Source: Allomyces arbusculus
Lineage: Eukaryota; Blastocladiomycota; Blastocladiomycetes; Blastocladiales; Blastocladiaceae
Assembly (NCBI GenBank): GCA_027604705.1
Contig: JADHYV010000004.1
Coordinates: 186,001 to 250,000 of the forward strand
Direction of reading: 5' to 3'
DNA: 64,000 nucleotides
The notes beneath the pieces were generated by a model that searched no databases, was not told where the DNA came from, and saw nothing but the letters and a program-made list of their open reading frames with translations. A program made the position numbers and the translations under genes. Numbering within the stretch: the first letter of the stretch is position 1; each line of letters starts with the position of its first letter. Positions 17,499 through 62,377 of the stretch are shown here, one piece after another.

Positions 17499-19890
17499 TT
17501 AGACCTTGAGCTTCCCCGGCCCGTACCGCGCCGCCTGCTCGCGCTCCACGACATACTCGAGCGGCACGAGTTTCGGCAACTGCACGAGCTCGATCCCGCG
17601 CTTATTCACGAGCACGGCCGTGCCCGCGACCGCAATCGAGGCGGCGAGGACCAAGACGCGGAACTGCGTGTAGGTCTCGCGCACAAACAGGAGCGCCATG
17701 GCCATGAGCACCGCGGCCGTTAAGAACACGGCGACGAGAGCTTTTTGCGCGTCCGACCACGCGGCCAACACTCCCTTCTCCTGCGTCAATGCGCGCGTTG
17801 CGGCCACATACGGTCCATTGGCGATCGTCGCGTTGCCCAAGAACAAGTCGTACGCGTCCTGCCGGGTCCCATCGAGGAAATTGTTCTTGACGTACCGCAC
17901 GACCGAATTGTACCCGTCCTGCAGGAGCCCGGCGTTCGTGCGCGTGCCCGTGCGGGTGTAGTCGGTCTTGAGCGCGCCCGTACCGGAATAGAGCACCGAG
18001 ACCACGTCGGCGTTATCAGCCCACATGTTCTTGAATGTCTTTTCGAATTCTGAACTCGGGTCGACGGTCTCGCCAGAGCGCAGGACGCCGAGATCGACAA
18101 GTTGTTCCACGAGCACGTGCTTGGCGAGCACCGATTGCACGACGTTGGTCCGGTCGAGACAGTCAATGCAATTCGTGCGCACGACGCCGCGCTGCACGTG
18201 CTGGATCTTGGTGCCCTGCGGGCTCGTCGTCGCTGCAAAGTACTTCTGGTGGTCCACGTCCGGCCGGATTTGGTCGACGAGCAGCGAGATGCGGTCGTAG
18301 CGCATCTTTTTGCACTCTTCGTGGAAGTCAAAATGAATGTACCTAAGACGACAAAGCGGGTGGCGTCAGCAAAAATATGGCTCCATGTCGAGTCGGAGGG
18401 CAAGGAAATGAGGTACCGACTTGAGGTTTGGGTGGTTGAACAAATTCACTTGCCGCTGAAACTCTTCGCCGAGCGGCAGCTCGTACCCCTTCTTGTTGAT
18501 GAGGTTGACCATGACCTGGCTGTCACCGTAGGTATCAAACTGTTCGTTGACGTGGCGAGCAAAAACGGCCTCCTACACATTATTCAACATAGCATGTTAG
18601 CGCCCCACTCTACCTCTCCCTTTTCAAACAAAAAAAAAAAATCCGTACCGACGTGGGCTTGTGCACGAGCTCGAGAATCGGCACGTACTTGGCGTTCACT
18701 TTTTGCCGCCAAAACAGCGGGATACTGCCGCGAATCTGCACGTAGCTGCGCACGTGCGTCGCGCGCTCTGTCGGTACGTGGTACGTGACGACTTGCTCGG
18801 TCTCGCAGAAATTGGCGACGTGGCCCTGCGCGTCGATCCCGCGCGAGTGGTACCGCGTGCCGACGCGGTGCACACGCTTGCGCGTGATGAGCGCGTACTG
18901 CACGGCGCGGTGGTGAATGACGGCGGGGGTGATCTTGACGTCTAGGGTGGCAGGAATGCGGGTGAGAGAGTGGGGGGTCACGGTTTTGGAAAACGGGAGG
19001 TGGGACGGACAGCCGCAAATGACGGGCAGGACAAAGGCGTGCGCTCGCGAGTCCTGCTGTGTCAGGCTGATGAGCTTCGACTGCAAGTGGTGGTTCCAAA
19101 AGTAGCGCGTGTTGGCCTACAGAGCGGAAATTATGTCCGGGGGTCAGCGCTTCCGCAATGACGCGAACACCATGCACAGCCGACACACGCACCAGCTGCC
19201 ACAACGGCTTGGCGCTCTCGGCGGCATCGCGCGACAAGTTGGTCTGCATCGTGTTGGTCAAGTCCCATGACGGGCTGTAGTACATGTGGCCCAAGTTGCA
19301 CATGCGGTCGAGCAGCGCAACGTAGGCGTCCTCGTCGATGCGCTGTGCGGGCGACAGGTGCGCAAAACTCTTGGCGACCGGGTAGAGCGCCGTGCGCGTA
19401 ATAGCAAAGACATCGTGCGAATGGTCCGGGATCAGCGCGCCGACCCGGCGCTTGCCCGTGATCACGACAAGGTAGTCGCCCGAGTGCAGCGTGACGAGCC
19501 CGAGAATGCCGTCGATATCGACGGTGGTCTGGAATTGCGTTGCGGGCAGCGCTACGCGTGGGCGGTGCCGATATCATGGTCAGCTGGACGTGCGTGAGTG
19601 TGCGGCTTGGAACGTGAAGCGGGCACGCGTACTCGGCACGAATTCTAGGGTGCCCGTGTCGCGTTGGATCACGAGGCGGTCATTGGCCGCGGCCTGGGAT
19701 GCCGGCTCGAGCGGCTCGAACGCGTAGACATCAGGCGCAATGTAGCTGCCGGGCAAGAATGGGTCCGCGTTAGCCGCAGGCCGCAGAGAATCCGAGGCAA
19801 GTTGTGCATGCTCGGCCAGGTGGAGGAGGCCGGTCGGGGAGGCGGCTGGTCGGCGACGCACAGGCGGAGCTTGGGGTGGGCGTTCATCAT
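17499..19890 (-). CDS. SAC1: Phosphoinositide phosphatase Sac1 (654 aa)
   Basis: Sac1 dephosphorylates PI4P in the ER/Golgi and is anchored by two C-terminal membrane helices. Exons on the minus strand: 19890-19862, 19745-19633, 19551-19193, 19116-18649, 18572-18421, 18342-17499. It begins MMNAHPKLRLYIAPDVYAFE; then TVDIDGILGLVTLHSGDYLV, MYYSPSWDLTNTMQ, RYFWNHHLQSKL, YHSRGIDAQGHVANFCETEQ, RGSIPLFWRQ, NLINKKGYELPLGEEFQRQV, IHFDFHEECKKMRYDRIS. The catalytic CX5R signature is RTNCIDCLDRTN, followed by GTGALKTDYTRTGTRTNAG. Two membrane helices lie about 90 and 60 residues from the end. One donor (GTCGGT at 18420) is non-consensus but needed for frame. The intron ending at 18573 has a run of 11-13 T near its start. 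The protein is longer than human SAC1 (587 aa), mostly by loops. Confidence 0.94.
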
Positions 19891-20378: not shown

Positions 20379-21470
20379 CTACTCGTCCACCCACGCGTCG
20401 TCGCCGTCATCGCCATCGGCCTCGTCCGAGAACGAGAACTCTACGCCTTCATACGCGTCGTCCCACCCGTCGTCGTCGCCAAACGCGCCCACCGAGACCG
20501 AGAAGCCCTCGTCGTACGCATCGTCTGACAGCTCATAGCTGTAGCCCGAGTCGGCCACTGAGTGCAGGTTCGCGTACATACTGTGGCGACGCCCTGACAA
20601 GCGAGCAAAAAAATGCCTCAATCAGACTCGGATCGGACGTGGCCGCACCACAGAGGAAAACAAATCAACGTACACGACTCCTGCTCGGCCGCCCTCTGAT
20701 TGGCCACCCTTTTCTCGTACCGCGCCAAAGCAGCCATGTACGGAGCGGCGCGCAGCACTTCCATCTGCTCCTTCAGCGACATGGTGGACGGCTTGCCTCC
20801 CTGACTAGCCGCAGCTGACCCGGCCATCGCTGTCCCACTCGCTACGGAGTTGAACGGAACGTGCGTGAGCCATCCAATCAATTCCAGTCAGTGCAATCGG
20901 CGAAATGTCCACTTACTCGGGACCTGCGCGGGGGTCGCGGTGTGGTGGTGGTGATGGTGGTGGTGGTGGTTATGGCCGTGCGTGCCGCGACCTTGCCCCA
21001 GACGGCGATGGCGGTGGCGACGGCGACGCGCCGCCGACGAGGCGCGGCGCCCATGATGCTGCCGGTGCGGACGGCCGCGGTACCGGCGGCCGTGACGGTG
21101 ACGCGCATGGTGCTGCCGACGCGCCTTGGGCGATGACGAGCTGACCAGCGAGCTGTCAGACGTGGCAGGTGCTCCCAGGACTGAAGGAGCGTCCTCTGTC
21201 GCGACTATCGCAACGCGTAGCGTCAGGTGTGACCGCTGCACGCACGTCACGAGTTGAGCGTGAGAGAGTTGGATCACACGTACAGCGCCGAATGTTCTGC
21301 TTCCTAATTGGGCGCACGGTCTCTGGGGATGTCGAAGCGAGGGGCTGGCCGATATCGTCTTTACCATCGTAGCCTTCCACGTCAAACGAGAACGTCGCGT
21401 CAACCGGCACCACTGCCATGGCGAGCGCGGCCGTGGCCGCAGCGAGGAGCAGCGTGTTGGAAAACTTCAT
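20379..21470 (-). CDS. Cluster protein A: secreted, His/Arg-rich middle and acidic Tyr-Asp tail (285 aa)
   Basis: Function unknown. Exons on the minus strand: 21470-21284, 21204-20917, 20841-20674, 20593-20379; all three introns (79, 75, 80 nt) are phase 1. Residues 1-25 (MKFSNTLLLAAATAALAMAV ending VDA) are a signal peptide. Exon 2 (about residues 63-158) is packed with basic residues: ARRQHHARHRHGRRYRGRPH, ARRRRHRHRRLGQGRG and HNHHHHHHHHH, nine consecutive His. Exon 3 is helical (SLKEQMEVLRAAPYMAALAR). Exon 4 is the acidic tail: VADSGYSYELSDDAYDEGFS, then WDDAYEGVEFSFSDEADGDD, ending AWVDE. It is closest to C and D in exon plan. The His run suggests binding of metals or acidic partners; the charge split suggests self-association. 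Both are inference. Confidence 0.8.
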
Positions 21471-21633
21471 GGTGTGGGCACGGCGCGTGCAGTTAGGTCG
21501 AGTCAATTTGATACTTGACGATTGTATCGTGCGTAAAGCCCGAGACGCGTCGAAAGCGTGGGGAGAATAGTCGACACGGTCGGTGGCTGCCAGGAGCGGG
21601 ACAAGACACCAGAGACGACGGCGGGGGCGCCGA

Positions 21634-21640
21634 TGTTATA
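21634..21640 (-). promoter_or_regulatory. TATA-like box of gene A
   Basis: TATAACA on the minus strand, about 165 nt before the ATG at 21470, within GCGCTATAACA. The same CGCTATAA context precedes gene C. Confidence 0.5.
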
Positions 21641-22852
21641 GCGCGTCCGAGGGAATGGTGGCGACGCCATGATGGCAGGCGCGCCAACGACGAGGAAGCC
21701 AGCGTCTTTGTGGACTGCGATGCGCCAAACACGATCGGGGAGGCCATGGTGGGAGGACGGAAGGCGTGCGCTGCGGCCGGACGGAAGGCGTGCGTTGCGG
21801 CTGAACGGCGCGGCGGGTCATGAGAAACAACGGCGAGGAAGCGGTCGCAGGCACGGCCACATCAAGTCGCATCGGGCCAGTCGCTTGTCAAAGAGACACT
21901 ACCGCCCACATGACGCGGGGGGGACAGTGAGCTGTGGGAATTGATCTCTCATCTGGGCGCCGGGGCACGCAGCAGACGTGAGAATGGTTGACGGGGAGGT
22001 GGAGACAGGCGCCAATCTGTCGCCCATCGAGGAGCCGGTCGACTGGGCGGCAAGGAATCGCGGGCAGGCGGCTCGATCGTGCGGGATCGTGGGGAAAGGA
22101 GAGACGCGGTCACGTGCTCATCTACGCTTTGGGCTCTCGTCGTCGCTCACGACAAGGTCGACGACGACAGCATCAAAGGCGCTGCACGAGCAGCAGCAGC
22201 AACTTTTCTCGCACATCCGGCATGCGCACACGCGGTGCAGGAACGACCACGGCACGGCCTTGCGGCCGTCGGCTCCACGAAGCAACCACCGCTCGTCGGC
22301 CGAGACAAGGCCTTACAAGCGGTCTCAAGCTGCTGTGAATGAAGTATCAGCCATGGGCCGACGACACGACCATCCACGCTCAGAAAAATCTTTGAGCTGA
22401 CTGTTGATGGCAAGAATTCTGGGCTGGCCGCGAGGGGGAAGAGCTGCGTGCGGTCCCTGTGTTTTCTCGGCTCAACGATCCGGCCAGCCTACCACCCCCA
22501 AAGGGGCGGGGTCGACACGCAACGACACGAACAAGGCTGTCTACATCGACTTCAATTTCCCAAGCCCATGGTGTTGTCTGTACCGGTGACCCATGTGCAC
22601 GGTTGCGCCGTGCGCGCGTTCACGGCGTGGTCAGGCGGTACACTATCGTTTCCGTGCCTCGCAATAGCCCAAGTCGGTTCGTGCTTTCCCGCATCGCCTC
22701 GCGCGAACTGGCACGCGCACCACCAAACACCCAACAACCTCGTTTCCCACCACGCCGGCCGTCTCCTGACGGCACGCCACGGCGAACGACGGCCCTGCCT
22801 TGCGCGCCCCACTCGGCCGACCCATCAGGCTCGGCCGCGCCGTTCGCACCCT

Positions 22853-22859
22853 ACATATA
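22853..22859 (+). promoter_or_regulatory. TATA-like box of gene B
   Basis: ACATATA about 135-140 nt before the ATG at 22992, a spacing like that of the other cluster genes. Confidence 0.45.
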
Positions 22860-22991
22860 CCACGCACCACCCGCCGCCATGGCGTTTCCAAGTCAATACA
22901 CGACCTGCTCGTTCCTCGGCTCGCCGCTGGCCATCGAGCACGCGCGACCGCGGAACCAAGAATTCGTCACCTCGACCTCACTCCACCAACA

Positions 22992-24599
22992 ATGAAGCTC
23001 CAGGCGCTCTTCGTTATCGCGGCCGCGGCTACGTTCGTCGCCGCCAACCCGAGCCCGATCTCGCCGGCGTTTGCCACGTCCGAGGACGCGCTCATCGAAG
23101 ACGTGGGCGCGTCGGTCCTGGCTGCGCCCGCACCGATCGTGCACGCGCCACATATGACGGTCGCGGCTGCGCTCAAGAAGCCGGCCAAGCCGGCCAAGCA
23201 CCGCCGTACGGCCAAGAAGCCACTCACGCGCGAGCAGAAACGGAAGCGGCAGGCCAAGAAGCGCGCGCACCGTGCACGGCTCGCGGCGGCCGGCAAGTAC
23301 GCGTCGGGTCGCGTCACCATGGGCGACAGGCCAATTCGCACGCGCTCGACGATGGGGGCCAAGCTGCCGCGGGTGCATGGCAAGCCCAGTGGTATGGCAC
23401 GCAAGCACAGGAAGGTGCGCAACCCGAACGCGGCACGCAAGCCCATAGTGCCGCTCGCGACGCGGCTGCAGAGCAAGATCAACTCGTTGCCCGACGGGTC
23501 TCCGCTGCGCACTAAGTACGAGCGCCGGCTCGCATGGTTGACTAAACCCAAGAAACCCAAGACCACAGCGCGTACGTACTGTCATGATGGATTCGTGTGC
23601 AGTGGGGTGATCGAGCTGTCTTTTTCTCGTTTCGGACGAGAGCTGACGTGAGACCCTCCTTATATTCTGCATCTATCAGTCATGTCGACCGCTGTGGGGC
23701 CGCTCATGACGCACCTGTACCGTGGGGACCTCACGCCGTTCTCCGAGCCCGATAGCGGTGGCGTCGTGAGCTACGAGAAGGACGGGTCCGTGAGTTTCAA
23801 GCGCTACGAGGTGGCCTTAGGCCGCGGCATCAAGCACAAGTTCGGGTTCCAGACGCGCTCGCCGCTGGCCATGCCGGCCGGGGCCCAAGCCGTGAAGATT
23901 CGGGCGCAGGTCGCGACTAAGGCCGTAAAACCGTCAACCGACGTGGCCAACCGTGCGGTTCTCGCGTGCAAGAGGGGTAACACGGCCCTCTCCATCTTTC
24001 ACGGTACCAAGCGGCTCTTCACCATGCCGTTCCCCAAGGAGTACTATGGCGGCGATCCGCTCAAGGACCTGGAAGTGATTGTGCCCGTGGCGGACCTGTC
24101 GCCCAAGCCGGCGCCCGTCATGGTGCTCGATGAACATGACCACATGTCGTCGCCCTCCGAAGTGTGCGAAGACATCTCGACGCTGACGGTGCGCAATCTG
24201 GAGTTCCAGCCACTCGACTCAATGCCTGCACCGCCACCGGGCGCCAAGACGACGGGTACGAAGCGGCCGGGCGCCAAGTTTGCGGTGGCCGACTCGGGCT
24301 ACCACTACGAGTCATTTGACGACGATTACGACGAAGGTTTCTCAGTTTCCGAGGACGCGTACGACGGCGACGACGCGTGGGACGACGCATACAACGGCGA
24401 GAGCTACTCGATCGCCAACGAGGCCGGTACGGTCGACAACGACGACGACGAGCCAGAGGACGCCTACTACGGCGGCGACTTCTCGCTGTCCGAGGACGCG
24501 GCCTACGACGGCGACGACATGTGGGAGGATTCGTACGATGGCGAGGGGTACTCTGTTGAGGACGAGGCCGGTTCCGCCGACGACGATGACGAGGACTAG
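22992..24599 (+). CDS. Cluster protein B: secreted, basic segment, two-Cys domain, acidic tail (499 aa)
   Basis: Function unknown. Exons 22992-23571 and 23680-24599 (108-nt intron, phase 1). Signal peptide MKLQALFVIAAAATFVAA (1-18), as in F. Residues about 60-193 are strongly basic (HRRTAKKPLTREQKRKRQAK). Exon 2 starts LMSTAVG and carries the shared domain (about 210-375): KHKFGFQTRSPLAMPAG, a first Cys in ACKRGNTALSIFHGTK, a second in VCEDISTLTVRNLEFQPL; alternating hydrophobic strands suggest a beta-sandwich. The tail (about 397-499) has repeats such as ADSGYHYESFDDDYDEGFS, DAYDGDDAWDDAYNG and AAYDGDDMWEDSYDGEGYS, ending DDDDED. It is the only cluster member on the plus strand. An AATAAA lies at 24689. 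Extracellular matrix, adhesion or storage roles are possible. Confidence 0.85.
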
Positions 24600-25478
24600 G
24601 GTGCGAAGCGGCGTTGTGTTTGATCTTGTCGGGCGGGTATGGCATTGCCAGCATAATTTCGCTCGATGTGTTGGTCCGCGTTGATGTGAATAAAGTGTGA
24701 GTGAGCAAGTTGACTCTTTTCTTTTGTGGTCATGTTTGCCTGTTTTTTGTTTTTGCCTGATGCCTGCGAGGACATGAGGACACTCCCCTGCCTCCTTCAT
24801 CAATGAACGTCCGAGCAGGGCCAGCTCCATCGCGCCACATTTGTTATGAACGTGAGAAAATAATATCCGGAATGCCATGCTTGACATTCTCCACCGTTTG
24901 TTAGGTTGCGGGAGGGCGTGGATTATAGGTAGATGGGCAGCGCCCTCACTGGACACTCACGCCAAGCGAAGCGCAACTTGAGCCCTGTAACCGATCCACC
25001 TTGCCTTGACGGTGGAGAACCGGTATTCTGATTCGATACATTGGTCAATTCCGCCCATCAATCTCTTTTCACTGCTGGTCAAGTCCGTGAGCAGATCGTG
25101 CTGGAAATATTGCCACTCACGCGATGCGCGTCACAAGACGGCCACGATCGCAGGTCTCTATCAAAATGATGTTCGGCCGGCATTACGAGCGAGGTGTGCA
25201 GCGCGCGTGCCAAATCCACGCTCGGCCGGATGGGAAGGGTGTGCCAGGCAATTTGCGCGGTGGATACCAGGGCTTTTCCTCACTCTTCACTCTGTCGGAT
25301 ACGGTGGCCGCAAATATGCACGTAAATATAGAATCTGGCTTCATGTTCGAACAGCGAGCCACTATGTTTGCGCGCCAGGTGCGTACTTTGACCTCGATCA
25401 GCGTGACTAGCTCAAGAAAACCAACCACGCGGCCTCACCTGTGCCTATTCGGAGGTCCATGCCAAAGGGCCCACCGAC
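24600..25478. other. Convergent 3' region between genes B and C
   Basis: About 880 nt between the stops of genes B and C. It is less GC-rich than its surroundings. Open frames here have no similarity to the cluster proteins and no supporting motif, so I report no gene. Confidence 0.5.
24689..24694 (+). terminator. Polyadenylation signal of gene B
   Basis: AATAAA about 90 nt after the stop codon of gene B, followed by a T-rich stretch (TTTTCTTTTGTGG). Position and context fit a cleavage signal. Confidence 0.6.
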
Positions 25479-26703
25479 CTACTCCTCCCACGTTTCCTCC
25501 CACGCGTCGTCGTCGTCGCCAAACGCCGCGTCTTCAGAGATCGAAAACCCCTCATCGTACTCGTCGTCGAACGACTCGTAGTTGTAACCCGAGTCGGAGA
25601 GCGAGTGCTTGGCCGAGTTCTTGATGGCGCTCACTAGCAAGCAGACAGAACAGGTAATCGTCAGATCTGGATCGCAAGAAGATGAACACGAGCAACTTCG
25701 CATCAACAGAATCACGTACTCCGGTTCCGCCGGGCCTTGATCTGCTCGAACCGCGCGAGATCGGACACGTACTGGTTGGAGTGCACGCGGCGCACTGGCT
25801 CCATCGACCGGTAGTAGTTGGACTGTGGCGATATGTCCTCGAGACTCGCAGCCGTGGCCGACCTGGTGGTAGGCGGCGTCGCGCTCGCTACGTAAAGAGG
25901 ACAGGTGGCATGAGTGTCATCGAGCCACCAATAGCGCAGTCGACAAAAGGTTCACGTACTCGGGACCTGCGCGGGAGTCGAGGTCGTCGGCTTGCCGTGG
26001 GCGTGTTGGTGGCGACGGCGGTGGGGGTGGCCGCGACGATGACCACGACTGTGGCGGTGGCCGTGCGCGTGACCCTGGCTCGGACCGTGGCCGTGCGCGT
26101 GACCTTGGCCGGTACGGGAATGGCGGTGGCGACGGCGGCGCGCCGCTGATGAGTTGCGGCGCCCGTGGTGCCGGCGTGGACGACGGTGGCCACGACGCGT
26201 GTGACGATGCGGGTGCGCTATAGGGGACGCGGTCGTCGGGGTGCCGACGTTGGTGGGAGGTGTACCGACAGCCGAGGGTGCGTCGTCGGTCGCGACTGTC
26301 GCAGCGTCGTGTCAGAGGTGCTTGCCGTGGACTCGTACGCGTCGGCGAGTCGACACGGAGGCGAGAGTTTACGTACACATTTGCACATCCCAAGATTTGC
26401 CGAGAGGCAACCCGCCAAGGATTGCACTGGTCGTGCTGGCCGGCGCCAACGTGACACCACGGACTATTGGAGAGGACGGTCCGCCAGGTCAGCATGCGCG
26501 CGCAAGGTCGCCATGTCGAGACAGTTTGTTGCCATGGCAAGGCAGCGAGCCCGGGCACAATCGTGAACTGAGCGAGACAGTCAACGCATACGATGCGATC
26601 CACGCCCGCCAGACCGCGAGAGCGACTGGGCGTCGGCCGGCACGGCCACCATGGCGAGCGCCACTGTGACGGTGGCGAGCAGCAGCGTGTTGGAGAACTT
26701 CAT
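25479..26703 (-). CDS. Cluster protein C: secreted, His-Gly/Arg-rich middle and acidic tail (about 285 aa)
   Basis: Function unknown. Exons on the minus strand: 26703 to about 26592, 26463-26377, 26295-25960, 25887-25720, 25633-25479. All junctions are phase 1 and internal exons are 87, 336 and 168 nt (multiples of 3). The exon-1 donor is the least certain point (26592 or 26604). Signal peptide MKFSNTLLLATVTVALAMVA ending VPADA. Exon 3 has HPHRHTRRGHRRPRRHHGRR, HAHGHGPSQGHAHGHRHSRG and HRRGHPHRRRHQHAHGK: dozens of His in His-Gly, His-Arg and His-Ala-His steps. Exon 4 is YRSMEPVRRVHSNQYVSDLA and a short helix. The tail is SDSGYNYESFDDEYDEGFS then AAFGDDDDAWEETWEE. The promoter is paralogous to that of A. 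The His-rich segment resembles metal-binding HGH repeats by composition only. Confidence 0.78.
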
Positions 26704-26849
26704 TGCGATGAAATGGCGGCGCGTGCAGTAAAGTCGTGTTGTTCTCGCAGTTGGAGCACGAGGCGTGTCGGAACGGCAGCGGGAGAATGGTCACTGCTGC
26801 GGGACCAGGAGCAGGTGGAGGACACCAGCGACTGCGGCGGGAATGCTTC

Positions 26850-26856
26850 ATTTATA
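26850..26856 (-). promoter_or_regulatory. TATA box of gene C
   Basis: TATAAAT on the minus strand about 147 nt before the ATG at 26703, within CGCGCTATAAATGAAGC. Confidence 0.6.
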
Positions 26857-27029
26857 GCGCGCGCAAGCGGGAACATTGTCGTCGTGAGGGCCGGTTCGCG
26901 CGTTGGCACGCCAACGAGGGGCCGGCCAGCGCGTGTTGGTACGCCGAGACTGGGGGCCGGAGCTGGCCATGGTGGGAGCGTGGGCGGCGCGGTTGGCGGC
27001 TGAACAGCGTGGCGGGTGGGAAGCAGCGG

Positions 27030-27074
27030 CAGGGAGACGGTGCGCAGGGAGACGGTGCGCAGGGAGACGGCGCG
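27030..27074 (+). repeat. Short tandem repeat, about 3 x 15 nt
   Basis: Three copies of CAGGGAGACGGTGCG (the last slightly changed) about 330 nt upstream of gene C. They could be promoter elements or a simple minisatellite. Confidence 0.75.
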
Positions 27075-27630
27075 GGCGCGATTGCTGCAGGCACGATGGG
27101 GTGGTGCGAGGTGGTGGTGGTGGTCGGCTCTCAAAGGTGGAGAGCTGCTGGCACATGTCGGGCGACGCGGTCACGCCAGAACCGATGGCCCTGGCACTTT
27201 GCATCCACATCACTCGATCATTCCTCCATGGCCGACCTTGACAAACCGCCACGCCGCTGCTGCCAGTGGCTGAAAGCAACCGGCGTGGCCAAGACGCACG
27301 CAGCCCCTCGTCTCACGCTTCGGTCGCGCACCGGGGTCGCGCCGTGCAAACGAGCTGAGCGGACCTCGCGCACCTGACAGCCGTCCCTGAAATAGTCGGC
27401 TCGGCGACAACGTCGCGACAAGACCAAATCGACATAAACAAACTGATCATTCCTGATCTTTCATTGTAATAAGCCCCCCGCGGCACGCTCGACCAGCGAA
27501 CGGTGCGGGAAGCGGGCAGTCATCAACTAAACACTATGCATTGGAAATGCGAGACAGGGGCGGCGCACAACCGCGCCCCATGTGGAGGATGCGCCCGAGC
27601 CGAGTGCACGCGGCGCGCGGGACGGACACC

Positions 27631-28957
27631 CTAATATTCGTATTCGGCCGCGTCCTCGAGCTCCTCGTCGAACCCTTCCTCGAGCGAGAAGCCCTCGCCA
27701 TCGTACGTGTCGTCCCACGCGTCCTCAAACGCTTCGTCGGCAATCGAGTACCCCTCGCCCGAGTCGTACGGGTCGTCCCACGCGTCTTCGAATGCCGCGT
27801 CCTCGGACAACGAATAACCCTCGTCGTACTCGTCGTCAAACGGCTCGTAGTCGTAGCCCGAGTCGGAGACCGACAGCAAGCGCCCGTACGTCACTGGAAA
27901 GCAACCAGAACAGACAGGCATCAGGCCCAGGTCGCAAAGGCAGGACAGAACGGCCGTGATAACGTACGCATCTCATACCGCTTCTTGGCTTCAAGCTTGG
28001 CCTGTTCCCTCGCCGCCTGTTCGCGCATCTGCTGGCGCATAGCCGCCTTCCACTCGCGAATCCCACCCGGCGCGCCTCCGAGACTGGCCGCCGCCGTCCC
28101 AGTCGCCGTCCCGCCCGCTATAAACGTAAAATCACCGTCCACATCAGTTCTCGCAAGCGGCGCCGAAAGTCCACCGTTAACACGGCCAAAGGGGAACAGA
28201 TACGGACTCGGAGCCGGCGTCGTGGGAACCGCAGTCGTCGGCTTGCGCTGACGGCGACCACGCGCGCGGCGCTGGCCCGGACGACGGTGACGGCGACCGT
28301 GCTTGCGCTGCTGGCCGGCCGGACGGCGGCGGCGGCGGCGACGGTGCTGTCCCGGCGAGCTGCTGCGACGCACGCGGTTCCGCCGGCGCGGACGGCGGCG
28401 ACGGTGGCCGCTGCGCCGCGGACGCGTCGTGGGCGACGACGGGCCCGGCGTGCCGGCGGTATTGGTGGGCGGGCCCACTGCCGAGGGCGCGTCGCCCGTC
28501 GCGACTGCAGACGATAACGCGTCGTGTAAGTTTTTGCCGCGGTCGCGCGTTGCCAAGTCGAGCGCAAGGGGAGAGACCGAGCACGTACACCGCCGCGGAG
28601 CGTATTCCTTGATCGGCCACCCACCAGCGCCCGTATTCTTGACGACTGGGATGTTCTTGACGGCCATGGACTGAGGCTGCTTCAAATACGCGTACTTTTC
28701 CTCGAGCCCTAAAATTGACCACATCCGGACAGAGAGTGAGGCAAACGTCGCGTCAGTCCGCGAATACGGCAACCAGTTGGGCAAGATACGACCGCGTGCC
28801 CGCGGGCAACGAGCGGCGCACGGCGCACGACGAGAGAAATCGACGAACAGGGAGGCAGCCGGATGTTTGCCCACGAAAATGCGTCTGCGGCCGGCGCCGC
28901 GACCATGGCGAGCGACGCGGTCGCCGTCACGAGGAGGAGCGTGTTGGAAAATTTCAT
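27631..28957 (-). CDS. Cluster protein D: secreted, Arg-rich middle and acidic tail (about 320 aa)
   Basis: Function unknown. Exons on the minus strand: 28957 to about 28822 (donor uncertain), 28708-28589, 28504-28208, 28117-27968, 27893-27631; internal exons are 120, 297 and 150 nt and all phases are 1. Signal peptide MKFSNTLLLVTATASLAMVA, then AADA. Exon 2 reads LEEKYAYLKQPQSMAVKN and WPIKEYAPRR. Exon 3 is Arg-rich with few His: SGHRRRRPRRRNRVRR, QHRRRRRRRPAGQQRKHGRR, GQRRARGRRQRK. Exon 4 is a charged helix (REWKAAMRQQMREQAAREQA). The tail: SDSGYDYEPFDDEYDEGYS, AAFEDAWDDPYDSGEGYS, EDAWDDTYDGEGFS, ending AEYEY. The intron 28118-28207 is exactly 90 nt and open in frame, so it could be retained. 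Confidence 0.78.
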
Positions 28958-29635
28958 CGTGTTGGAGCGCGGCGCGAGCGGCTCGTATCGGATTGGGTTG
29001 GCACTGGCTGGGGGAAAGGAAACACAAGGCGCGTCGGATCAGGGGCGGACAGGTCAGCACGGTTGTGCTTGGCCAGGAACTGCGGGGAGGAGGAGCGCGG
29101 CGATGGCGGGAGCGCTGGATTTATAGTGCGGAAACGACTCGGGGCGGCGGGGGCAGCGTGGCATGGTCGTGGCCGGTGCTTGGTGCGCCTGTGGGCCGAA
29201 GAAGATCAGTCCTGTGTCAAGGTTGGATGACATTTTGCGCTGGCGTCTGGCCGAGCTGCTGAGCAGAGAGCGTGGGACGCGAAAGCAGCGCGGAGGCCGG
29301 TGGGAAGGGCAAAGACGGGAGATGATGCTGAATTATTGGGCATTGCGCTTGCTATCGTGCGAGAAACGAATGAATCGCCTGTGAACTGGATATCTGTTGA
29401 GCGAGAGCAACCACGAGCAAACGACGGCTGGAGACGGAGCGTGCAGGGCTGCCGTCGCGACCGATGAACGGCGACGCTGAAGCAACGGAAAATCGGAATT
29501 GTCCGCCAAGTGACCGGGAATGCTCGGCCAGGGAACAGTGGCCGGCCAGATGGATGTATTCAAAAATCACATTGATAAAACATCTCAAGACGATCCGTCC
29601 GCAATTGCGCGGGCGGGAAAGAATCCGCTCGTCCC
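28958..29635. promoter_or_regulatory. Gene D upstream region and gene E 3' flank
   Basis: About 680 nt with no supported gene. Beyond the TATA box of gene D I see no clear element. Confidence 0.45.
29119..29125 (-). promoter_or_regulatory. TATA box of gene D
   Basis: TATAAAT on the minus strand about 162 nt before the ATG at 28957. Confidence 0.6.
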
Positions 29636-31056
29636 TTAGTACTCGTCGTCGGCCGCGTCCTCATCGTACGCATCCTCGACCGAGAAATCACCGCCATAGT
29701 ACTCGTCATCGGCCGCCGCGTCCTCGTCATACGAGTCTTCGACCGAGAAATCGCCGTCGTAGCTGTCCTCCCACATGTCGTCGCCGTCGTAGGCCGCGTC
29801 CTCCGAGACCGAGAAGCCCTCGTCATAGTTGTCCTCCCACATGTCGTCGCCCTCGTACGCCGCGTCCTCGGAAACCGAGAAGTCGCCATCGTAGTTGTCC
29901 TCCCACATGTCATCGTACGACTCGTCCCACGAGTCGTCAAACGACGCGTAGTCGTAGCCCGACTCGGACACCGAGAACTTGGCCTTGGCACCGGCGGCAG
30001 CCGTCTTGGGCTTGCGCACGGGCAGCGTGTCGTGGAACTGCACCTTGAACCCCTTGATCTGCAGGATCGAGTGGTCCATGCACTTGGACGCTGACGCGTG
30101 GTCGTGCGCGGCCTGCAGCGTGATCGGCGCCGACGTGTGCGACAGCTTGGAGACGGGCACGCGCAGACGCAGCGTCTCGTACTTGCTGCTGCCGTGCGAC
30201 CCCTTGGGGAACCGCAGCCCGCCGAGGGGCTTGCCGCCGTGGAAGACGGTGATGGCCGTGTCAGACTTGCGGCACACCGGCGCCGAGCTCGGGCGCGCCA
30301 AGGTCTTGCCGGTCTGTTTCTTGAGGCTGCGCTGCACGGGCTTCTTGGCCTGCGCCTTGATCTTGGCCAGGAACGTCACGTACTTGGTCCCGGCAGGGAT
30401 CGCGAGCGGCTTGGCCGTCTGGAAGCCGTACTTGTGGATCACGCCGTGACCAGCCGTGAGGCCCTTGCGCACGAGACGGACCGACCCGTCGGCGCCGTGC
30501 TGGATCGCGGCGGGGAAGGGCGGGTCGACAAACGGTACGAGACCAGCAGGCGAGCTGCGGTTCTTGGAGACCGTGTGCGCGCCGGGCGCCGCGGCGGTCG
30601 AATAACCTAAAGGGACATGCATCAAGTAAGCAATCTGCGTCCGTGATACGCGCTCACATTAAGTATTGAAGAGCACGCGCCCCAAGGCATCCTCTCCTCG
30701 TAGTTCTGGCGCGGCTGCATGCGCTTGAGCTTGTTCTCGAGAACACGGCGCTGCCAGTGGTTGCGCGGCAGCTTGTTGATCTTGTCCTGCATTTCTTTGA
30801 TCTGACGCTTCTTGCGCCGCGCCATGGCCTTCTTGCCCTCCGTGCCGAGCCAGCTGGTGATTTTCTTGCCCGAGTCGGGGCCCTTGAGCGTGTTGGCCAC
30901 CGAATTGTACTGTTGCTTGAGGTCCTTGGCCTTGGTCGCCCACGTGTTGGTCGGGCGATTACCGCTCGCGTCCAGTTGTTGCGCATCGGCCGTCGTCACC
31001 GCCACGGCGAGCGCGGCCGTGGCCGTAGCGAGGAGCAGCGTGGTCGAGTACTTCAT
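29636..31056 (-). CDS. Cluster protein E: hybrid type, basic segment, two-Cys domain, long acidic tail
   Basis: Function unknown. Exon 1 begins at 31056 with a signal peptide MKYSTTLLLATATAALAVAV (A/C/D type), then a Lys/Arg-rich helical region (KKAMARRKKRQIKEMQDKIN, HWQRRVLENKLKRMQPRQN). Exon 2 (about 30609-29636) has the shared domain: VPFVDPPFPAAIQ, IHKYGFQTAKPLAIPAGTKY, a first Cys in VCRKSDTAITVFHGGKPLGG, a second in KCMDHSILQIKGFKVQF, then a tail of about 110 residues with SESGYDYASFDD, repeated DDMWEDNYDGDFSVSEDAAY-like units and an end DEDAADDEY. The junction is unsettled: the donor homologous to F and B (GGCGC|GTGCTC near 30678) is not in the phase that the exon-2 acceptor at about 30609 needs. 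An alternative is the GTGAGC donor near 30660 with an acceptor further into exon 2. The gene may also be slightly damaged. Confidence 0.72.
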
Positions 31057-31639
31057 GGTTGACGAGAAGTGCGCGGCGGAGGAGGCGTTGGCGTTGGGCG
31101 CGAGAAAGAAAGGAGATGCGACGTGAAGCAAGAGCCGACAAGCAGATGGCGCTTTTATAGCCTTGCCCGACCGCCGTGGTGCTGATTCGCAGAGGGACAA
31201 AGGAGGGTCGAGGGTGAAGGAAATCAGGAGCGTGAGCGTGGGATCGCCGCGCTGAGCGGCTTGGGACTGCATCCAGCATCGCACCATGCCAATCGTAGCT
31301 CCTTTCGCCTCTTTTATGTGTATTTTTGCAGAGCTCGTGGATGAGGACCGGGGCGCGCGACGCTGAAAAGCCAAGGTATCTCGGCTGTGGCAGCTATTCA
31401 AGACGCGGTCACGTGTCCTGTGCATCTCTGGTCTCTGGCGACGTCAGACGATGAGCTTCTTCGATGTGACTGTCCAGACTGATTGTATTTCGGCAAGTGA
31501 TAAAAAGGAGAACTACTCAGCGACCCGGTCGCATAATAACAAAACCTGGTCATTTGGCCACCGGCCAGCAACCATCGGCGCAGGTCGAGGAACCACACGT
31601 CGCAATCCTGGCACGTTGCACGCTCGACGCGCGGGCGAC
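31057..31639. promoter_or_regulatory. Gene E upstream region and gene F 3' flank
   Basis: About 580 nt with no supported gene besides the TATA box of gene E. Confidence 0.45.
31152..31159 (-). promoter_or_regulatory. TATA box of gene E
   Basis: TATAAAAG on the minus strand about 97 nt before the ATG at 31056, the closest match to the TATA consensus in the cluster. Confidence 0.65.
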
Positions 31640-33126
31640 CTAATAGTAGTCGTCGACGGCGTCCTCGTCGTACGAGTCCTCAACCGAGAAATCGCCGTCG
31701 TACATGTCCTCCCACATGTCGTCGCCCTCGTACGCCGCGTCCTCGGAAACCGAGAAATCGCCTCCGTAGTACTCGTCGTCGGCCGCCCCGTCCTCATCGT
31801 ACGCGTCCTCGACCGAGAAATCACCGCCATAGTACTCGTCATCGGCCGCCGCGTCCTCGTCGTACGAATCCTCGACAGCGAAATCGCCGCCGTAGTATGA
31901 GTCGTCCCACGAATCTTCAAACGCGTCCGAATAGTCGTAGCCCGAGTCGGAGACCGAAAACTGGCCGCCCGACGGGACCGAATCGTGGAACTGCACCTTG
32001 AGGTCGCGAACCGACAGGCTCGACCGTTCCTGGCATTTGTACGGGTTCGTATGGTCGTGCGCGGCTTGCACCGTAATCGGCGCCGGCGTGGGCGAGAGCT
32101 TGGAGACGGGCACCGTCACCTGAATCGGATCCCACCGGCTGGGATTGCCATAGTAGGCGCGCGGGAACTTGAGCCCGCCGAGGGGCCGGCCGCCGTGGAA
32201 GACCGTCAATTCCGAGTTGCCCTTCTCGCACATGCCGGGCGAGGTGGGGTTGAACCACGCGTTCGCCTTGCCCAAAATCGTCACGTACTTGGTCCCCGCT
32301 GGCACGCCCAACGGCTTGGCCGTCTGGAACCCGTACCGGTGGACGACTCCGCGGCCGGGCGCAATGTCGTGCCGCGTCAGCATAATAGACCCGTCCTTGT
32401 TCTTGTCGACCGTGTTCGCGAAGGGCGGGTCGACAAACGGACGCAGCGACGAGGCCGCACTAAACGCGCCGGGCGCCTCGGACATCGACATGACTATCGA
32501 ATCAGGTGGAGAAGCACGCCCGCGTCAGTTCACAGCCGGATCGCGCATGCAATCGTGGTCAACGTCTGCGTACGCGCCGTGGTTTTGGGCTTGTTCAGCC
32601 GCGCGAGCCTCCGCTCGAGCATCATGCGCTGCCGCGACCCGACAGGCAATGAGTCGATCTTGGTCTGCAGCCGTGTCGCGAGCGGCACCGTAGACTTGCC
32701 CGTGCTGGTCGGCTTGTGCGTGCCCGTGGGCCAGCGGGACCCCTTGGGCCAGCGCGTCATGCCACCGGGCTTCCCGTGAACCCGCGGCCGCTGGACACCC
32801 GGCGGGATGATTGGATTGAACGGCTTGTTTTTGCGGTTCTTGGCCTGCTCGGCACGCATCGCGCGCATCCACGCCGCCTGCTTCACCCGCTCCTCGGGCG
32901 TGGCCCACCGCCGCTTGATCGCTGGCTGCTGCCGCCGGCGGCGCTTGTTCTTCTTGTTGGGCGTCTTGACCGCACCCGTGATCGTCATGTGCGGAGCCGA
33001 CGCGCCCATGGTCGACGCGCCAACGTCTGCCGTCAGTGCGTCCTCGGTCGACGAGTAGTCGGGCATTGGGTCGGCGGCGACGAACGTGGCCGCGGCCGCG
33101 AGAACGAACAGCGCTTGGATTTTCAT
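31640..33126 (-). CDS. Cluster protein F: secreted, basic segment, two-Cys domain, acidic tail (468 aa)
   Basis: Function unknown. Exons on the minus strand 33126-32574 and 32493-31640 (80-nt intron, phase 1, same place as in B). Signal peptide MKIQALFVLAAAATFVAA (1-18). Residues about 50-184 are basic: NKKNKRRRRQQPAIKRRW, MRAMRAEQAKNRKNKPF, PRVHGKPGGM (also in B), TVPLATRLQTKIDSLP (also in B). The shared domain (about 200-355) reads RPFVDPPFANTV, VVHRYGFQTAKPLGVPAGTK, MCEKGNSELTVFHGGRPLGG, APITVQAAHDHTNPYKCQER, LSVRDLKVQFHDSVP; the two Cys could pair. The tail (about 362-468) repeats DEYYGGDFSVEDAYDED and has EGDDMWEDMYDGDFS, ending DAVDDYY. B and F are the closest pair over exon 1. Confidence 0.85.
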
Positions 33127-35715: not shown

Positions 35716-37232
35716 ATGGCCGACGTTTTCCAGATGCTCGCGTCGGGCCGTCCCGGCCGAGGCGCCGCTCAGAAGAAGGCTCTCGTCGAGTTCCGCGCCG
35801 GTAAGTCGATTTCGCGGTTGTTGACACGCTAGAGCCCGCTCCAGACGCGGTCAGGAGGTGCCGGAACAAGAGACCATGATCAAGAATACTCACAGCGCAC
35901 TTGGCCACGCCCATGACGGTGGATAATAGGCAAGATGGTGCGCGACGGCCGTATGGTCAAGCCCGACACGCGTAAGGGGTGCGTTTGGTTCGCTTGATCG
36001 AGCAGTTGGTTGCGGAGACCAGATCACCCACACTGCCCCGTCCCCTCCTTTAGCACCATCTCCCTCGACGTCGGCGACGACACGCTGCTGCATTTCTACT
36101 GGAAGGGTAACTGCCACTCTCATCCACTCATTGACGCTGCCGTCATGCCATGCTGCTCATCGCTCCCCCTCCGATCCTCCTCCAGACCGCGGCACGAACC
36201 GCGTCGAGCTCGACCTGATCATTTTCCCCGAAGAGGCCGAGTTTATTAAGGTCGAGCAGTCGAACGACCGCGTCTTCATGCTCGCCTTTAAGTCGTCGTC
36301 GCAAAAGCACTTTTTCTGGATGCAGGAGCCCAAGGCCGACAAGGACGCAGAACTTGTCGAGAACGTGAACCTCGCCATCAACGACCCGGCCGCGGCCATG
36401 GCCAAGCTCCGGTCGCCCACGTCCCCCGGCGCCCGGCCCATGGCGCTCACGCCCGACCAGGCGCAGATGATGCGCGCGCTGCAAAACTTTGGGTGCGGAT
36501 GTTGCGGTTGATTCAGACCGTATTTGGGAACAGTGACTGACGCATCCTACTTTGTTGCGTCTAGCACGGGCGTGCCGAACCGTCAACCCCCGGCGGCGGC
36601 AGCGGCTCCCGCTCCAGCTCCTGCCACGGCCGCGTCGCCCACGTCGACGGCCGCCGCTGCGGCCCCCGCGACTCCCGCGGGCGCGTCGAGCGACGAAATG
36701 GCGCGCATTCGCAGTATCCTGGCCGGTATTCAGGTGCCGCAGGGTGAGCCCGGTACGCACTTCACTAGCGCACTTTTTCACTTACGAGGAACTGGAGAAT
36801 TGACGTGTCCTGTGCCCTAGACGTGGACCTGTCGGCGGTCCTGACCATCGATAACGTGCGCCCCGTCCTGGCCAACCAGACCGCGCGCGAAGCGCTCTTC
36901 CCGCACCTGCCCGAAGGTTCCGCGCCGACCACGACTGAGCTCGAGGACACGGTCCGGTCGCCGCCGTTCCGTCAGGCGCTGCAGACGCTCACCTACGCGC
37001 TGCGTAACGGGCAGCTCAGTACGATTTTGACGTCGATGGGTATGTGGGTTTACCGAGTCGTGTGGCAAGTGGAGGGGACTCAGAACTGATACGCGAACGC
37101 CCTTGTGCAGGTCTGGATCCGTCGTCGGCGGGCGACGCGCAGGGGGTTGACGCGTTCCTCAAGGCCGTGGTCGCGCTCGTCGAGAAGGAGAAGCAGGGGG
37201 AGAACCAGGACGACAGCATGGACACGTCGTAA
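35716..37232 (+). CDS. RPN13: Proteasome ubiquitin receptor Rpn13 (ADRM1), 337 aa
   Basis: Rpn13 sits on the 19S particle, binds ubiquitin through its Pru domain and recruits the deubiquitinase Uch37 through its C-terminal DEUBAD. Seven exons: 35716-35800, 35930-35978, 36054-36106, 36186-36492, 36565-36743, 36821-37039, 37111-37232; all phases close. Pru domain (about 20-125): ALVEFRAGKMVRDGRMVKPD, TRKGTISLDVGDDTLLHFYW, RVELDLIIFPEEAEFIKVEQ, KHFFWMQEPKADKDAELVEN. FFWMQEPK is a hallmark. An Ala/Pro-rich linker follows. DEUBAD (about 225-337): SAVLTIDNVRPVLANQTARE, LFPHLPEG, FRQALQTLTYALRNGQLSTI, then GVDAFLKAVVALVEKEKQ, ending SMDTS. A full-length DEUBAD means the Uch37-binding half is kept, unlike in budding yeast. 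Confidence 0.95.
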
Positions 37233-37565: not shown

Positions 37566-40500
37566 TCAATCATTGGATGCTCGCCACAGCATCAAATTCT
37601 GGTCCTTGCACATGCCTGCCGACAAGACCAGCACTGACCCGTCGCTCGCCTGGCTTGCCGACGCGATACACGTCACGTTGCCGCCCGGATGCCCACGGAC
37701 CGGTTTTGCGAGCACGGGCGACGTATTCCCACCGGCGGCGGCAGTGACGAAGTCCCAGACGTAGACGAGCTCGTACTCGCCAAACACGACCTTGGTCGGG
37801 TTGCTCGTCGCGGACGGGACCAGGAACGCGGCCGACGTGACTTTGGCGCCCTGCGCGGGGACAGAGACGATCGGTTTCCAGGCACTCGTGTCCCAGACCA
37901 CGACCACGTCTTCTGACGCCGTCAGCAAGTAGGACCCGCCACGTGCCCAGTCGATTGCGTGGATGTTGCGCCCATGCGGTGTCGAGAGAGCACGCACAGC
38001 GTCGGCAGGTGGCGATGCGCCCGCGATACTTGAAGCGCCGTTCGACGTCGACGCGTCGGGCACATCAATCACGTAAAGCGTCGAGTTGAGCCCGACGGCA
38101 ACAACACGGTCAGACGCACCGATCCCACCGCGCGGCGCGGAACGTGCACGTGCACGCAACGGGTTGGTCGCATAATTGTGTCCGTGCTGCGCGAGCTTAA
38201 ACTGCTGAACGAGCGTGCCGCCCGCGGCCAAATCAAACACGCGAAACTCGCCGTCGCCGTCAATCGCGCACAGGTGGTGGCGCCCGATCCGGTCAACGGC
38301 CGTAACGACACTGCCGACAGGAATCGTTTGGACGCGAACGTAGGCTGCTTCACCATCGAGCACGGCGCGCGCGGCCGCCGAGTCGCCCAATTCGCCCATC
38401 GATTCCTCGGCAATCATTTCGCCCGTTGCATTTCGCCGCGCTTGCCAGACCTTGATGGCGCTGTCGTACCCTGCTGTGAGCAGAAGATCGCCGGCGAACC
38501 GCACACACGACAAATGTGCCGTGTGCTCGTCGAGCACTTGGCACCGTACGCGCGTGTGTGTATTCCACAGCGTCACGCGCTTATCGGGTGGCCCGGACCC
38601 GGCCGCAGCGAGCGAGCCGGACCAGTGCACGTCGCACGTCGACAGCTTGTTAGGGTGGCCCACGAGCGGCCCAATCGTTGCGAGCACCGGGTCGAGCATT
38701 GCTTGACTCCCTGCACCGCCGGGTCCACCGTGCACGCCCGGCGACACGGTTCCGCTCCCCATCATGGCATCGGTGTCAAACATGTTGCTAGGGTCGAGAA
38801 ATCCATTCAATTCGGCCTCGAGGTCCGGGTTCGTGTCGAGCGTCGCGCCGACGCCGGCACTTTGCGTCAGTGCGAGAATCTGCTGCTCGAGGTCAAACGG
38901 CTGCTGCTGAGACGACTGCGGCGGCGGCTGTTGGTTGGTCTGCGACGCGGGCGGGAGCTGGAACGGGTGCGACAGCGCGGCTTGTGCTTGTGCTTGCTGT
39001 TGTGCAACGAGCTGCTGCTGCTGCTGCTGCAGTTGCTGTTGTTGTTGCTGCTGCTGGAGCTGGAATTGCTGCATCTGCTGCATGTGCTGCATGTGCAACT
39101 GCTGCTGTTGTTGTTGTTGTTGTTGTTGCTGCTGCTGCTGCTGTTGTTGTTGTTGCTGTTGCACTTGCTGCTGCAATTGCTGCTGCGTCGGTGGTTGCTG
39201 CTGCTGCTGCTGCACGAGTTGCTGCGGGATGCCCACGGGCGACCCGAGCTGCACCGGGTGCGGCGTCGGGCTGTTCAGTGTCCCGAGTAACTGCAAATCG
39301 TTGGCCGAGAGCTGCGCCGACGCGAGCGCGGGCGTGCCAGAGCCCGGCGTGCCGGCGGCGGAATGCTGGAGCAGATGCTGCTGCTGCAACTGCGGCGATC
39401 GCATCGCGGCCGCCGCCGCAGCCGCCGCGGCTTGTTGCTGCTGAGCTTGCTGTTGCTGCTGCTGCAGAGCTTGCTGTTGGAGGAGCATCTGCTGGTGCTG
39501 CTGTTGCTGCTGCTGCTGTTGTTGCTGTTGCTGCTGTTGCTGGTGGAGACGAGCGAGTGCGGCTTGGTGTTGCTGCTGTGCGGCCGGGCCAAGCATGCCA
39601 GCTTGCGGGTGCATCGCCTGCTGCGCCGCGAGCTGCGCCTGCTGCACGAGCATCTGCTGCTGCTGCTGGTGCAACTGCGCCATTTGCAGCTGCTGGTGCT
39701 GAAGTTGCGGCGTTGGCGGTGCGTCTTGCTGCTGCTGCTGCTGCTGTTGGGCGGCCGCAGCCGCGGCCATCTGCTGCTGCTGTTGCTGCTGCTGTTGCTG
39801 TTGCTGCTGCTGGAGCAACAACGCCGCATTTGCGCCCGAGACGACCTGCTGCTGCAAATGCAACTGCGCCTGCGCGAGGGTCGGCGAGGGCGACATCGTG
39901 TGCGCGACCGACGACGACTCGGTCCGCGGCCGTTTCGCGCGTTTCCCACCGTTCCCTGCACCGTTGGCCGCGTCGGCCGGACTCGGCGTCGACCCCTTGC
40001 CCATGGGCGCGGGCGACCCGTTCGCCGTCGGTTGACCCTGCGGCTGCTGCTGCAGCAACTGCTGCTGCTGCTGCTGCTGCTGCTGCTTGGCGCGCTGCGC
40101 CATCATGAACTGGTGCGCGGCGGGGCCCTTGAGTCCGGGCGGCGGCATCCCCGCGGTCGATCCGGCGGATCCCGGCGGGATCCCAACGAGCCGCTGTTGC
40201 GCGAGTTGCGGCGATGGCGAGGGGTGGCCTTGCGGCGGCATGGGCTGAGGCGGCTGCTGCTGTTGCAGTTGTTGTTGCTGGAGCTGCTGCTGCTGCATCA
40301 TGAGCGCCTGCTGCTGCGGCATGGTCATGCCCGGCGACTGCCCCGGCACTTGCTGCTGCTGCCCCTGCGGCGGCAGCGGCCCGACCGGCATCCCCACCGG
40401 CCGGCGTCCACCTTGCACCTGCTGCTGCCGACGCAGCATCGACAACTTGCTGTTCATGACCGTGAAGAGCATCCCGCGCTCGGCCTCGGACAATGCCTTC

Positions 40501-61562: not shown

Positions 61563-62377
61563 GAGCGGTGGCGGCGACGGTGGCGGGGTGTGGGTGCGGG
61601 TGGCAGTGTGCAAGGCGACCGGCGCGACGCGTGCGATCACAGCAGTCGAGCGAGCGCGGATGGCTGGGTGGAGAGAGGTTGCAGCGGGATTGGAATGCCG
61701 TTGCCGCGTGCAAGGCGGACAAGGACAGGCAGGTCGTGTGCGAGCGAGAGATTGCGGGGAGAGAAGCGTTGCGCGTGCAGGTCGTCGGCCTCGAGGCGTT
61801 GATGGTGGGTGGTTGATGCTGGCCGGCGGAGCGAAGGACTTTGCCGTGGAGACCTGCTGGCGCCTGGCGGTGAGTGATGGCGACCTTGGTCGCTGTTCGC
61901 GTCAGGAGGGTCCGGGGGGCGCTGCGGCGCAGCCTTGAGCACGTGCTCCCTGGCCCTCGGTTCATGCGCGCTGGTTTGAGGAGGCGCGCGCCCCCGCTTG
62001 AAACTCCGTGGCTTGCCAGCATGGCTTGCCGATCGAGAAGGGGCGCACGTGCATCGCAGCAGATCTGGCACCCGGCGCCTCACCGCACGCGCGCGCGCCG
62101 GCGACCTCGGCGACCTGCTTGCGCCGCTGATCTCGCTTGCGCCGCTGAGCAGCGAGCTGTCGCCGCCACCACCACCACCCACGGCGCACGCGCCGTTGTT
62201 CGGCCGCACGGACGCAGCATCCAACGTGCACCCGCTCGCAACGGCAGCACCGGTTTGCAGCAGCACCGGACCCGCGCGAGATGCTCTCCGTCCGTAGCCC
62301 CCGCCCGCCTGCGCCGTCTGTCGCTCGCCAAGGCGCGAAACGCCCACCTGCCCGACGCGCTGCCCACCGTGTCCACG
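61563..62377. promoter_or_regulatory. Divergent region, CCCH gene / metalloprotease-like gene
   Basis: About 815 nt. Both strands are open over long distances because of the GC content. The plus-strand frame is continuous with the protease gene but has no signal-peptide-like start before 62378. No gene is supported. Confidence 0.45.

What the first reader, a model, noticed from the sequence alone, without database searches (positions are those of the whole stretch)
20379..33126. Six-gene cluster of secreted proteins built from basic and acidic modules
Sequence shows six paralogues (A at 21470, B at 22992, C at 26703, D at 28957, E at 31056, F at 33126), each with a signal peptide, a strongly basic middle and an acidic Tyr/Asp/Ser tail. 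I know no described family with this plan. Oppositely charged blocks in one secreted chain suggest complex coacervation, matrix or adhesive formation, or granule storage, perhaps at zoospore encystment. The role is inference.
Basis: partly seen in the sequence, partly recalled or inferred. Interest (0 to 1): 0.88.

Follow-up and report, generated by a model that had tools for sequence, protein, structure and literature searches.

The report
Six secreted charge-block proteins, unknown family
Six neighbouring related genes appear to encode secreted proteins that join a positively charged stretch to a negatively charged, tyrosine-rich tail, a layout suited to making a self-sticking coat or glue, but neither their function nor their host organism is established.

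Summary
Six intron-bearing paralogues (A-F) span 20379-33126; only B is on the + strand. Each has a signal-peptide-like start, a basic block, and an Asp/Glu/Tyr/Ser tail with no Lys or Arg in 503 residues across the six. A, C and D carry Arg/His-rich blocks (D mostly Arg). B, E and F carry Lys/Arg-rich blocks plus a beta-sandwich domain (AlphaFold2 pLDDT 83). Tails are related in DNA across both subfamilies; dN<dS in 19 of 19 paralogue comparisons. Charge segregation exceeds all 2000 shuffles for each protein. TATA lies upstream of 5 of 6 genes, 0 of 8 neighbours.

No match passed a Pfam cut-off, and scans of bacterial/archaeal and viral contigs confirmed none. Eukaryotic proteomes could not be searched, so "no described family" is unproven.

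Best explanation, inferred: near-neutral diblock chains that condense by basic-acidic pairing into a wall, coat or adhesive. Charge matching between block and tail was not significant (88 of 720 permutations). Zoospore and encystment were not testable. Gene E lacks a splice donor in phase with its homologous acceptor.

The parts
20379..21470 (-). Gene A: exons 21284-21470, 20917-21204, 20674-20841, 20379-20593; 285 aa
22992..24599 (+). Gene B: exons 22992-23571, 23680-24599; 499 aa
25479..26703 (-). Gene C: exons 26592-26703, 26377-26463, 25960-26295, 25720-25887, 25479-25633; 285 aa
27631..28957 (-). Gene D: exons 28768-28957, 28589-28708, 28208-28504, 27968-28117, 27631-27893; 339 aa; intron 28118-28207 has a weak donor and is open if retained
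29636..31056 (-). Gene E: exons 30658-31056 and 29636-30562 in the model used (441 aa); splice junction uncertain, the acceptor homologous to B/F would start exon 2 at 30606
31640..33126 (-). Gene F: exons 32574-33126, 31640-32493; 468 aa
20379..20561 (-). Acidic tail of A (60 aa, charge -22, with stop)
   Evidence: coordinates derived from tail length
24282..24599 (+). Acidic tail of B (105 aa, charge -42)
25479..25604 (-). Acidic tail of C (41 aa, charge -17)
27631..27873 (-). Acidic tail of D (80 aa, charge -33)
29636..29974 (-). Acidic tail of E (112 aa, charge -47); contains 63/66-nt tandem repeats
31640..31957 (-). Acidic tail of F (105 aa, charge -42); contains 63-nt tandem repeats
31958..32446 (-). 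Beta-sandwich domain of F
   Evidence: AlphaFold2 (pLDDT 83.3, pTM 0.80, 3 sequences)
29975..30541 (-). Beta-sandwich domain of E (homologous to F)
   Evidence: alignments
23748..24281 (+). Beta-sandwich domain of B (homologous to F)
   Evidence: alignments
20917..21204 (-). Arg/His-rich block of A (19 R, 20 H, 1 K in 95 aa)
25960..26295 (-). Arg/His-rich block of C (22 R, 21 H, 1 K in 112 aa)
28208..28504 (-). Arg-rich block of D (31 R, 4 H, 2 K in 98 aa)
30997..31059 (-). Signal-peptide region of E, 88.9% identical in DNA to the start of A (21411-21473): mosaic junction
21637..21640 (-). TATA, 170 nt before ATG of A; the others lie at -136 (B), -153 (C), -168 (D), -103 (E); F has only TACAAATA at -143
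22103..22114 (+). GACGCGGTCACG, one of three exact copies in the window (also 27164 and 31402), 633, 461 and 346 nt before A, C and E; not tested for function

Best explanation
A locally amplified family of secreted structural proteins. Each chain is a charge diblock: basic block first, then a disordered Asp/Glu/Tyr/Ser tail, with mature net charge -8 to +12. Shown: gene family, conserved signal-like start, charge segregation, selection on protein sequence, folded beta domain in B/E/F, predicted disorder of the tail (modelled for F). Inferred: tails of one molecule pair with basic blocks of others, so the proteins condense in the secretory pathway and set outside the cell as a wall, coat or adhesive; the beta domain may anchor them to glycan; Tyr residues may allow later cross-linking; TATA promoters suggest regulated expression.
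For: SCD -7.8 to -40.5, 0 of 2000 shuffles as low in each of six. 0 K/R in 503 tail residues, 203 D/E, 94 Y/F/W. Tail dN/dS 0.19-0.42 in six comparisons (ratios by hand). Tail pLDDT 33-55 and no secondary structure; domain pLDDT about 57-89 in the same model. TATA in 5 of 6 versus 0 of 8 neighbours. 12 of the 31 PDB chains with E<=0.001 are carbohydrate-binding modules or Fbs2 lectin-type domains (my count). Charge blocks drove condensation of Ki-67 repeats in PMC9106583 (passages).
Against: No localisation, expression or biophysics. Block and tail charges are not significantly matched: 88 of 720 tail permutations do as well, r -0.69; C and D are +12. The SCD values include the folded domain in B/E/F. 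Domain TM-scores to PDB chains with E<=0.001 are all below 0.5, and 8 of those 31 are Eph-receptor domains. Dibasic sites (8-21 per protein) could be cut by a Kex2-type protease, which would separate block from tail.
Confidence: 0.42

Rival explanations
1. Precursors of cationic antimicrobial or signalling peptides: the acidic tail is a pro-piece that neutralises the basic block inside the cell, and dibasic cleavage frees Arg/His- or Lys-rich peptides outside, as recalled for histatin-like peptides and eosinophil pro-major basic protein.
For: Dibasic sites 8-21 per protein, the last one upstream of the tail in 6 of 6. His/Arg-rich blocks in A and C. Near-neutral whole chains in A, B, E and F (-2, -2, -6, -8).
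Against: Tails are long, repeat-bearing and share a conserved motif, more than simple neutralisation needs. B/E/F hold a folded domain. Charge matching is not significant. No repeat-peptide layout was shown.
Confidence: 0.2
2. Wall or matrix proteins held by glycan binding and ion binding rather than by self-association: the acidic tail binds Ca2+ or a polycation such as chitosan, the basic or His-rich block binds polyanions or metal.
For: Beta-sandwich with carbohydrate-binding modules among its best fold matches. His-rich blocks in A and C (20 and 21 His).
Against: A, C and D have no such domain; fold matches are weak (TM below 0.5); no binding residues were identified.
Confidence: 0.22
3. 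Fast-evolving secreted effectors or host-interaction proteins of a parasite, with module swapping creating variants.
For: Clustered, rearranged, mosaic family (E), short linear repeats in tails.
Against: dN<dS in 19 of 19 comparisons; lifestyle of the organism unknown; no effector motif was searched for.
Confidence: 0.1
4. Artefact: GC-rich low-complexity DNA open by chance and joined by wishful splicing.
For: Basic blocks are open in several frames; E has an uncertain junction; no transcripts.
Against: Cross-paralogue homology with dN<dS, matching splice acceptors in A, C and D, folded domain predicted with pLDDT 83.
Confidence: 0.06

Closest known systems
Sandcastle-worm cement proteins (Pc1-Pc5, Pc3A/Pc3B)
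   Same: Secreted, strongly charged, Tyr and Ser; complex coacervation of opposite charges in granules; one Pc3 form is called polyampholyte or zwitterionic (PMC11277488, passages; the review names Pc3A and Pc3B inconsistently).
   Different: Mostly separate polybasic and polyacidic chains; no sequence comparison was made here.
Giardia cyst wall proteins CWP1-3
   Same: Secreted wall proteins that form condensed cores in secretory vesicles; CWP2 has a 121-residue basic C-terminal extension (PMC2851657, passages).
   Different: Basic, not acidic, extension; different organism; not compared by sequence.
Ki-67 repeat domains (charge blockiness)
   Same: Charge blocks drive phase separation (PMC9106583, passages).
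   Different: Intracellular, created by phosphorylation.
KEX2-processed repeat proteins (KEPs)
   Same: Signal peptide and internal repeats; dibasic sites present.
   Different: No dibasic site lies between the tail repeats, which the definition needs (PMC6339444, passages).
CBM4/CBM22/CBM28/CBM8 carbohydrate-binding modules
   Same: Beta-sandwich fold class.
   Different: TM-scores below 0.5, 8-14% identity among those rows, no Pfam match.
Diatom tyrosine-rich wall protein AC3362
   Same: Secreted, Tyr-rich, aquatic surface protein (PMC4220933, passages).
   Different: Lys/Tyr-rich domains rather than an acidic tail.

Membership tests
KEX2-processed repeat proteins | Signal peptide | tested here: inconclusive
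   Hydrophobic start KD19 1.64-2.02; no predictor available
KEX2-processed repeat proteins | KEX2 (KR/RR/KK) sites between internal repeats | tested here: not met
   Tail repeats contain 0 K/R in 503 residues. Repeats inside the basic blocks were not analysed for this.
Carbohydrate-binding module (CBM4/22-like) | Match to a curated CBM profile | tested here: not met
   No Pfam match above cut-off in six proteins at E<=10
Carbohydrate-binding module (CBM4/22-like) | Same beta-sandwich fold | tested here: inconclusive
   E 1.3e-4 to 9.7e-4 for 31 chains but TM-scores below 0.5
Carbohydrate-binding module (CBM4/22-like) | Binds a glycan | not testable with these tools
   needs binding assay
Coacervating adhesive or wall proteins | Strong segregation of opposite charges | tested here: met
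   SCD lower than 2000 of 2000 shuffles in each of six
Coacervating adhesive or wall proteins | Phase separation and extracellular deposition | not testable with these tools
   needs purified protein and localisation
Acid pro-piece / cationic peptide precursors | Acidic and basic parts of matching charge | tested here: inconclusive
   r -0.69, 88 of 720 permutations as good
Acid pro-piece / cationic peptide precursors | Cleavage between the two parts | not testable with these tools
   Dibasic sites exist upstream of the tail in 6 of 6; cleavage unknown

The most novel reading that the evidence does not exclude
A previously undescribed family of self-complementary, single-chain charge-diblock secretory proteins, built by shuffling signal, basic, beta-domain and acidic-tail modules within one cluster, that condense into a cell coat or adhesive without needing separate polycation and polyanion partners.
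Probability: 0.3. Interest if true: 0.75.

Novelty: new variant of a known kind. Interest (0 to 1): 0.58.

Why it matters
Underwater glues and cell coats by coacervation are mostly known from mixtures of oppositely charged chains in animals. A eukaryotic microbe that encodes both charges in one chain, in six swappable versions, would offer a simple genetic system for testing how charge-block order and tail length set condensation and adhesion.

Tried and rejected
Sought a known family: Pfam for all six, no match above cut-off; the best sub-threshold hits were E to TryThrA_C (E 0.01, 15.8 bits against a cut-off of 22.8) and to Exonuc_VII_L (0.049), on the Lys-rich helix-prone stretch, which I treat as composition. 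NCBIfam on four stretches (exon 2 of F, E, B; whole A), none at E<=1. PHROGs on three, best E 0.13. PDB sequences with the F domain, best E 0.94 osmotin, and with the B/E/F profile, none at E<=10; A, C and D were not searched against PDB. Viral contigs with the domain (42 stretches, none confirmed) and with A/C/D (174, none); genome contigs with the domain (73, none).

Viral origin of the domain considered: 126 BFVD matches at E<=0.001, the top ones phage tail or receptor-binding proteins with TM up to 0.53. Rejected as a common fold, since sequences do not match and the genes are spliced.

Exact charge matching of block and tail rejected as a claim (88 of 720). Phase-1 introns as a sign of exon shuffling not claimed: by eye Rpn13 in the same window also has a phase-1 first intron, so it may be general. 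Organism: marker genes gave no decision. Third-position excess is absent in one of 13 comparisons, the B/E domain (83, 68, 81; signal pairs not counted).

Full report
What is there. The window is eukaryotic: spliced genes, with neighbours matching Sac1-homology (18587-19573), Rpn13 (35930-36508), STIMATE and LisH/WD40 families, and Ras, Trm1, DAP3, citrate synthase and GDI. No tRNA and no Rfam family was found. Between the Sac1-like gene and DAP3 lie six related genes. Reading both strands and assembling exons gave A, C, D, E and F on the minus strand and B on the plus strand. Apart from an antisense ORF over B exon 1 (22970-23581), the ORFs kept by a GC3 filter in this stretch belong to the family.

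Gene models. Thirteen introns in A, B, C, D and F are GT-AG and phase 1. They were placed by eye and by agreement among paralogues, so this is not independent proof. In A, C and D the exon for the basic block starts at the same TCGCGAC site. D has one weak donor. E has no donor in phase with the acceptor that matches B and F; the model used is an open phase-0 alternative. No transcripts were available.

Architecture. A, C and D: signal, variable N-terminal part, FATxDAPS motif, Arg/His-rich block (Arg-rich in D), linker, tail. B and F: a different signal, Lys/Arg-rich block, beta domain, tail. E: A/C/D-type signal on a B/F-type body. Its first 63 nt region is 88.9% identical to A, with dS 0.28 against 0.61-1.1 for the other five signal pairs, on only 24-25 codons. 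B and F are inverted duplicates (68.9% over 370 nt). The family therefore looks amplified and recombined in place.

Tail. 503 residues in all, 203 Asp/Glu, 94 Tyr/Phe/Trp, 59 Ser, no Lys or Arg. A short motif, aromatic-Ser-hydrophobic then acidic, recurs in each tail (1 to 4 copies by the pattern used); 63/66-nt tandem repeats are detected in E and F only. Tails are homologous in DNA between subfamilies. dN is below dS in 19 of 19 comparisons of tails, domains, first exons, pre-tail parts and signals; tail ratios are 0.19-0.42, domain ratios 0.52-0.82 (by hand). Alternative sense frames of the tails are partly open too, as expected of GC-rich repeats, so openness alone proves nothing; the substitution pattern does.

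Charge. Pre-tail charges are +20, +40, +29, +45, +41, +34 and tails -22, -42, -17, -33, -47, -42 for A-F. Whole mature chains are -2, -2, +12, +12, -6, -8. SCD is far below shuffled sequences in each of six (0 of 2000), while nine other ORF stretches give z -2.7 to +1.3. A finer claim, that tail length is tuned to block charge, failed (88 of 720).

Structure. The B/E/F domain folds as a beta-sandwich with only three sequences (pLDDT 83.3, pTM 0.80). In a model of domain plus tail of F, the tail has pLDDT 33-55 and no secondary structure. Among 31 PDB chains at E<=0.001 I count 12 carbohydrate-binding or lectin-type entries, 8 Eph-receptor domains and 11 others, all with TM below 0.5. BFVD gives mainly phage tail proteins among the named top rows. 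This supports a fold class, not a function. The second aligner was not available.

Promoters. Exact TATA occurs 103-170 nt before ATG in 5 of 6 genes (F has TACAAATA), and within 250 nt of 0 of 8 neighbouring starts that I could place; with TAYAWW it is 6 of 6 against 1 of 8. By hand, 5 of 5 TATA genes falling in the six of fourteen has probability 6/2002. The pattern was chosen after looking, and the neighbour starts are unproven. GACGCGGTCACG occurs three times exactly, upstream of A, C and E; with two mismatches it occurs 42 times against 21.8 expected, so it may be a general motif.

What it is not known to be. No match passed a Pfam cut-off, and other searches listed under Tried and rejected were negative. 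Ten literature searches listed nothing that I recognised as this family from titles and abstract starts; only passages of five papers were read. Subscription papers and eukaryotic proteomes were out of reach. The statement that it is undescribed is therefore open.

Mechanism. Most likely, in my judgement, a secreted self-associating coat, wall or adhesive component, with the acidic tail of one chain pairing with basic blocks of others. The analogy with sandcastle-worm cement (PMC11277488), Giardia cyst wall condensation (PMC2851657) and charge-block condensation of Ki-67 (PMC9106583) is of behaviour, not of descent. The main rival is a precursor whose acidic tail neutralises cationic peptides; the dibasic sites allow it. 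The acidic pro-piece of eosinophil major basic protein and histatins are recalled; one search did not return a paper with the phrase 'acidic propiece' among the eight listed.

Organism. The citrate synthase resembles entries 8qzp and 9x0i, the latter named peroxisomal citrate synthase 3; GDI scores 354.9 bits to 3cph and 352.9 to 1gnd; Rac-like GTPase is closest to RAC1 entries. Species of these entries were not shown by the calls.

Noticed in passing
window 61874-63895 (+): ORF with a signal-like segment and an HELLHGLGFGS stretch resembling a zinc metalloprotease site (by eye); no Pfam match at E<=0.001.
   Followed up: partly
window 1285-2154 (-) and 4852-5619 (-): Two ORFs that look paralogous by eye (shared HPAF...MYS and PPxSP stretches); no Pfam match at E<=0.001.
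   Followed up: partly
window 51198-53127 (-): Citrate synthase whose best PDB match by name is a peroxisomal type; possibly informative on lineage.
   Followed up: partly
window 37569-42364 (-): Long Gln-rich protein with LisH in one ORF and WD40 in the next, LEUNIG-like by recall.
   Followed up: no
window 22103, 27164, 31402 (+): Three exact copies of GACGCGGTCACG, upstream of A, C and E.
   Followed up: partly
window 60890-60939: Perfect (GTG)16.7 microsatellite.
   Followed up: no
window 29636-31056: Gene E lacks a donor in phase with its homologous acceptor.
   Followed up: partly
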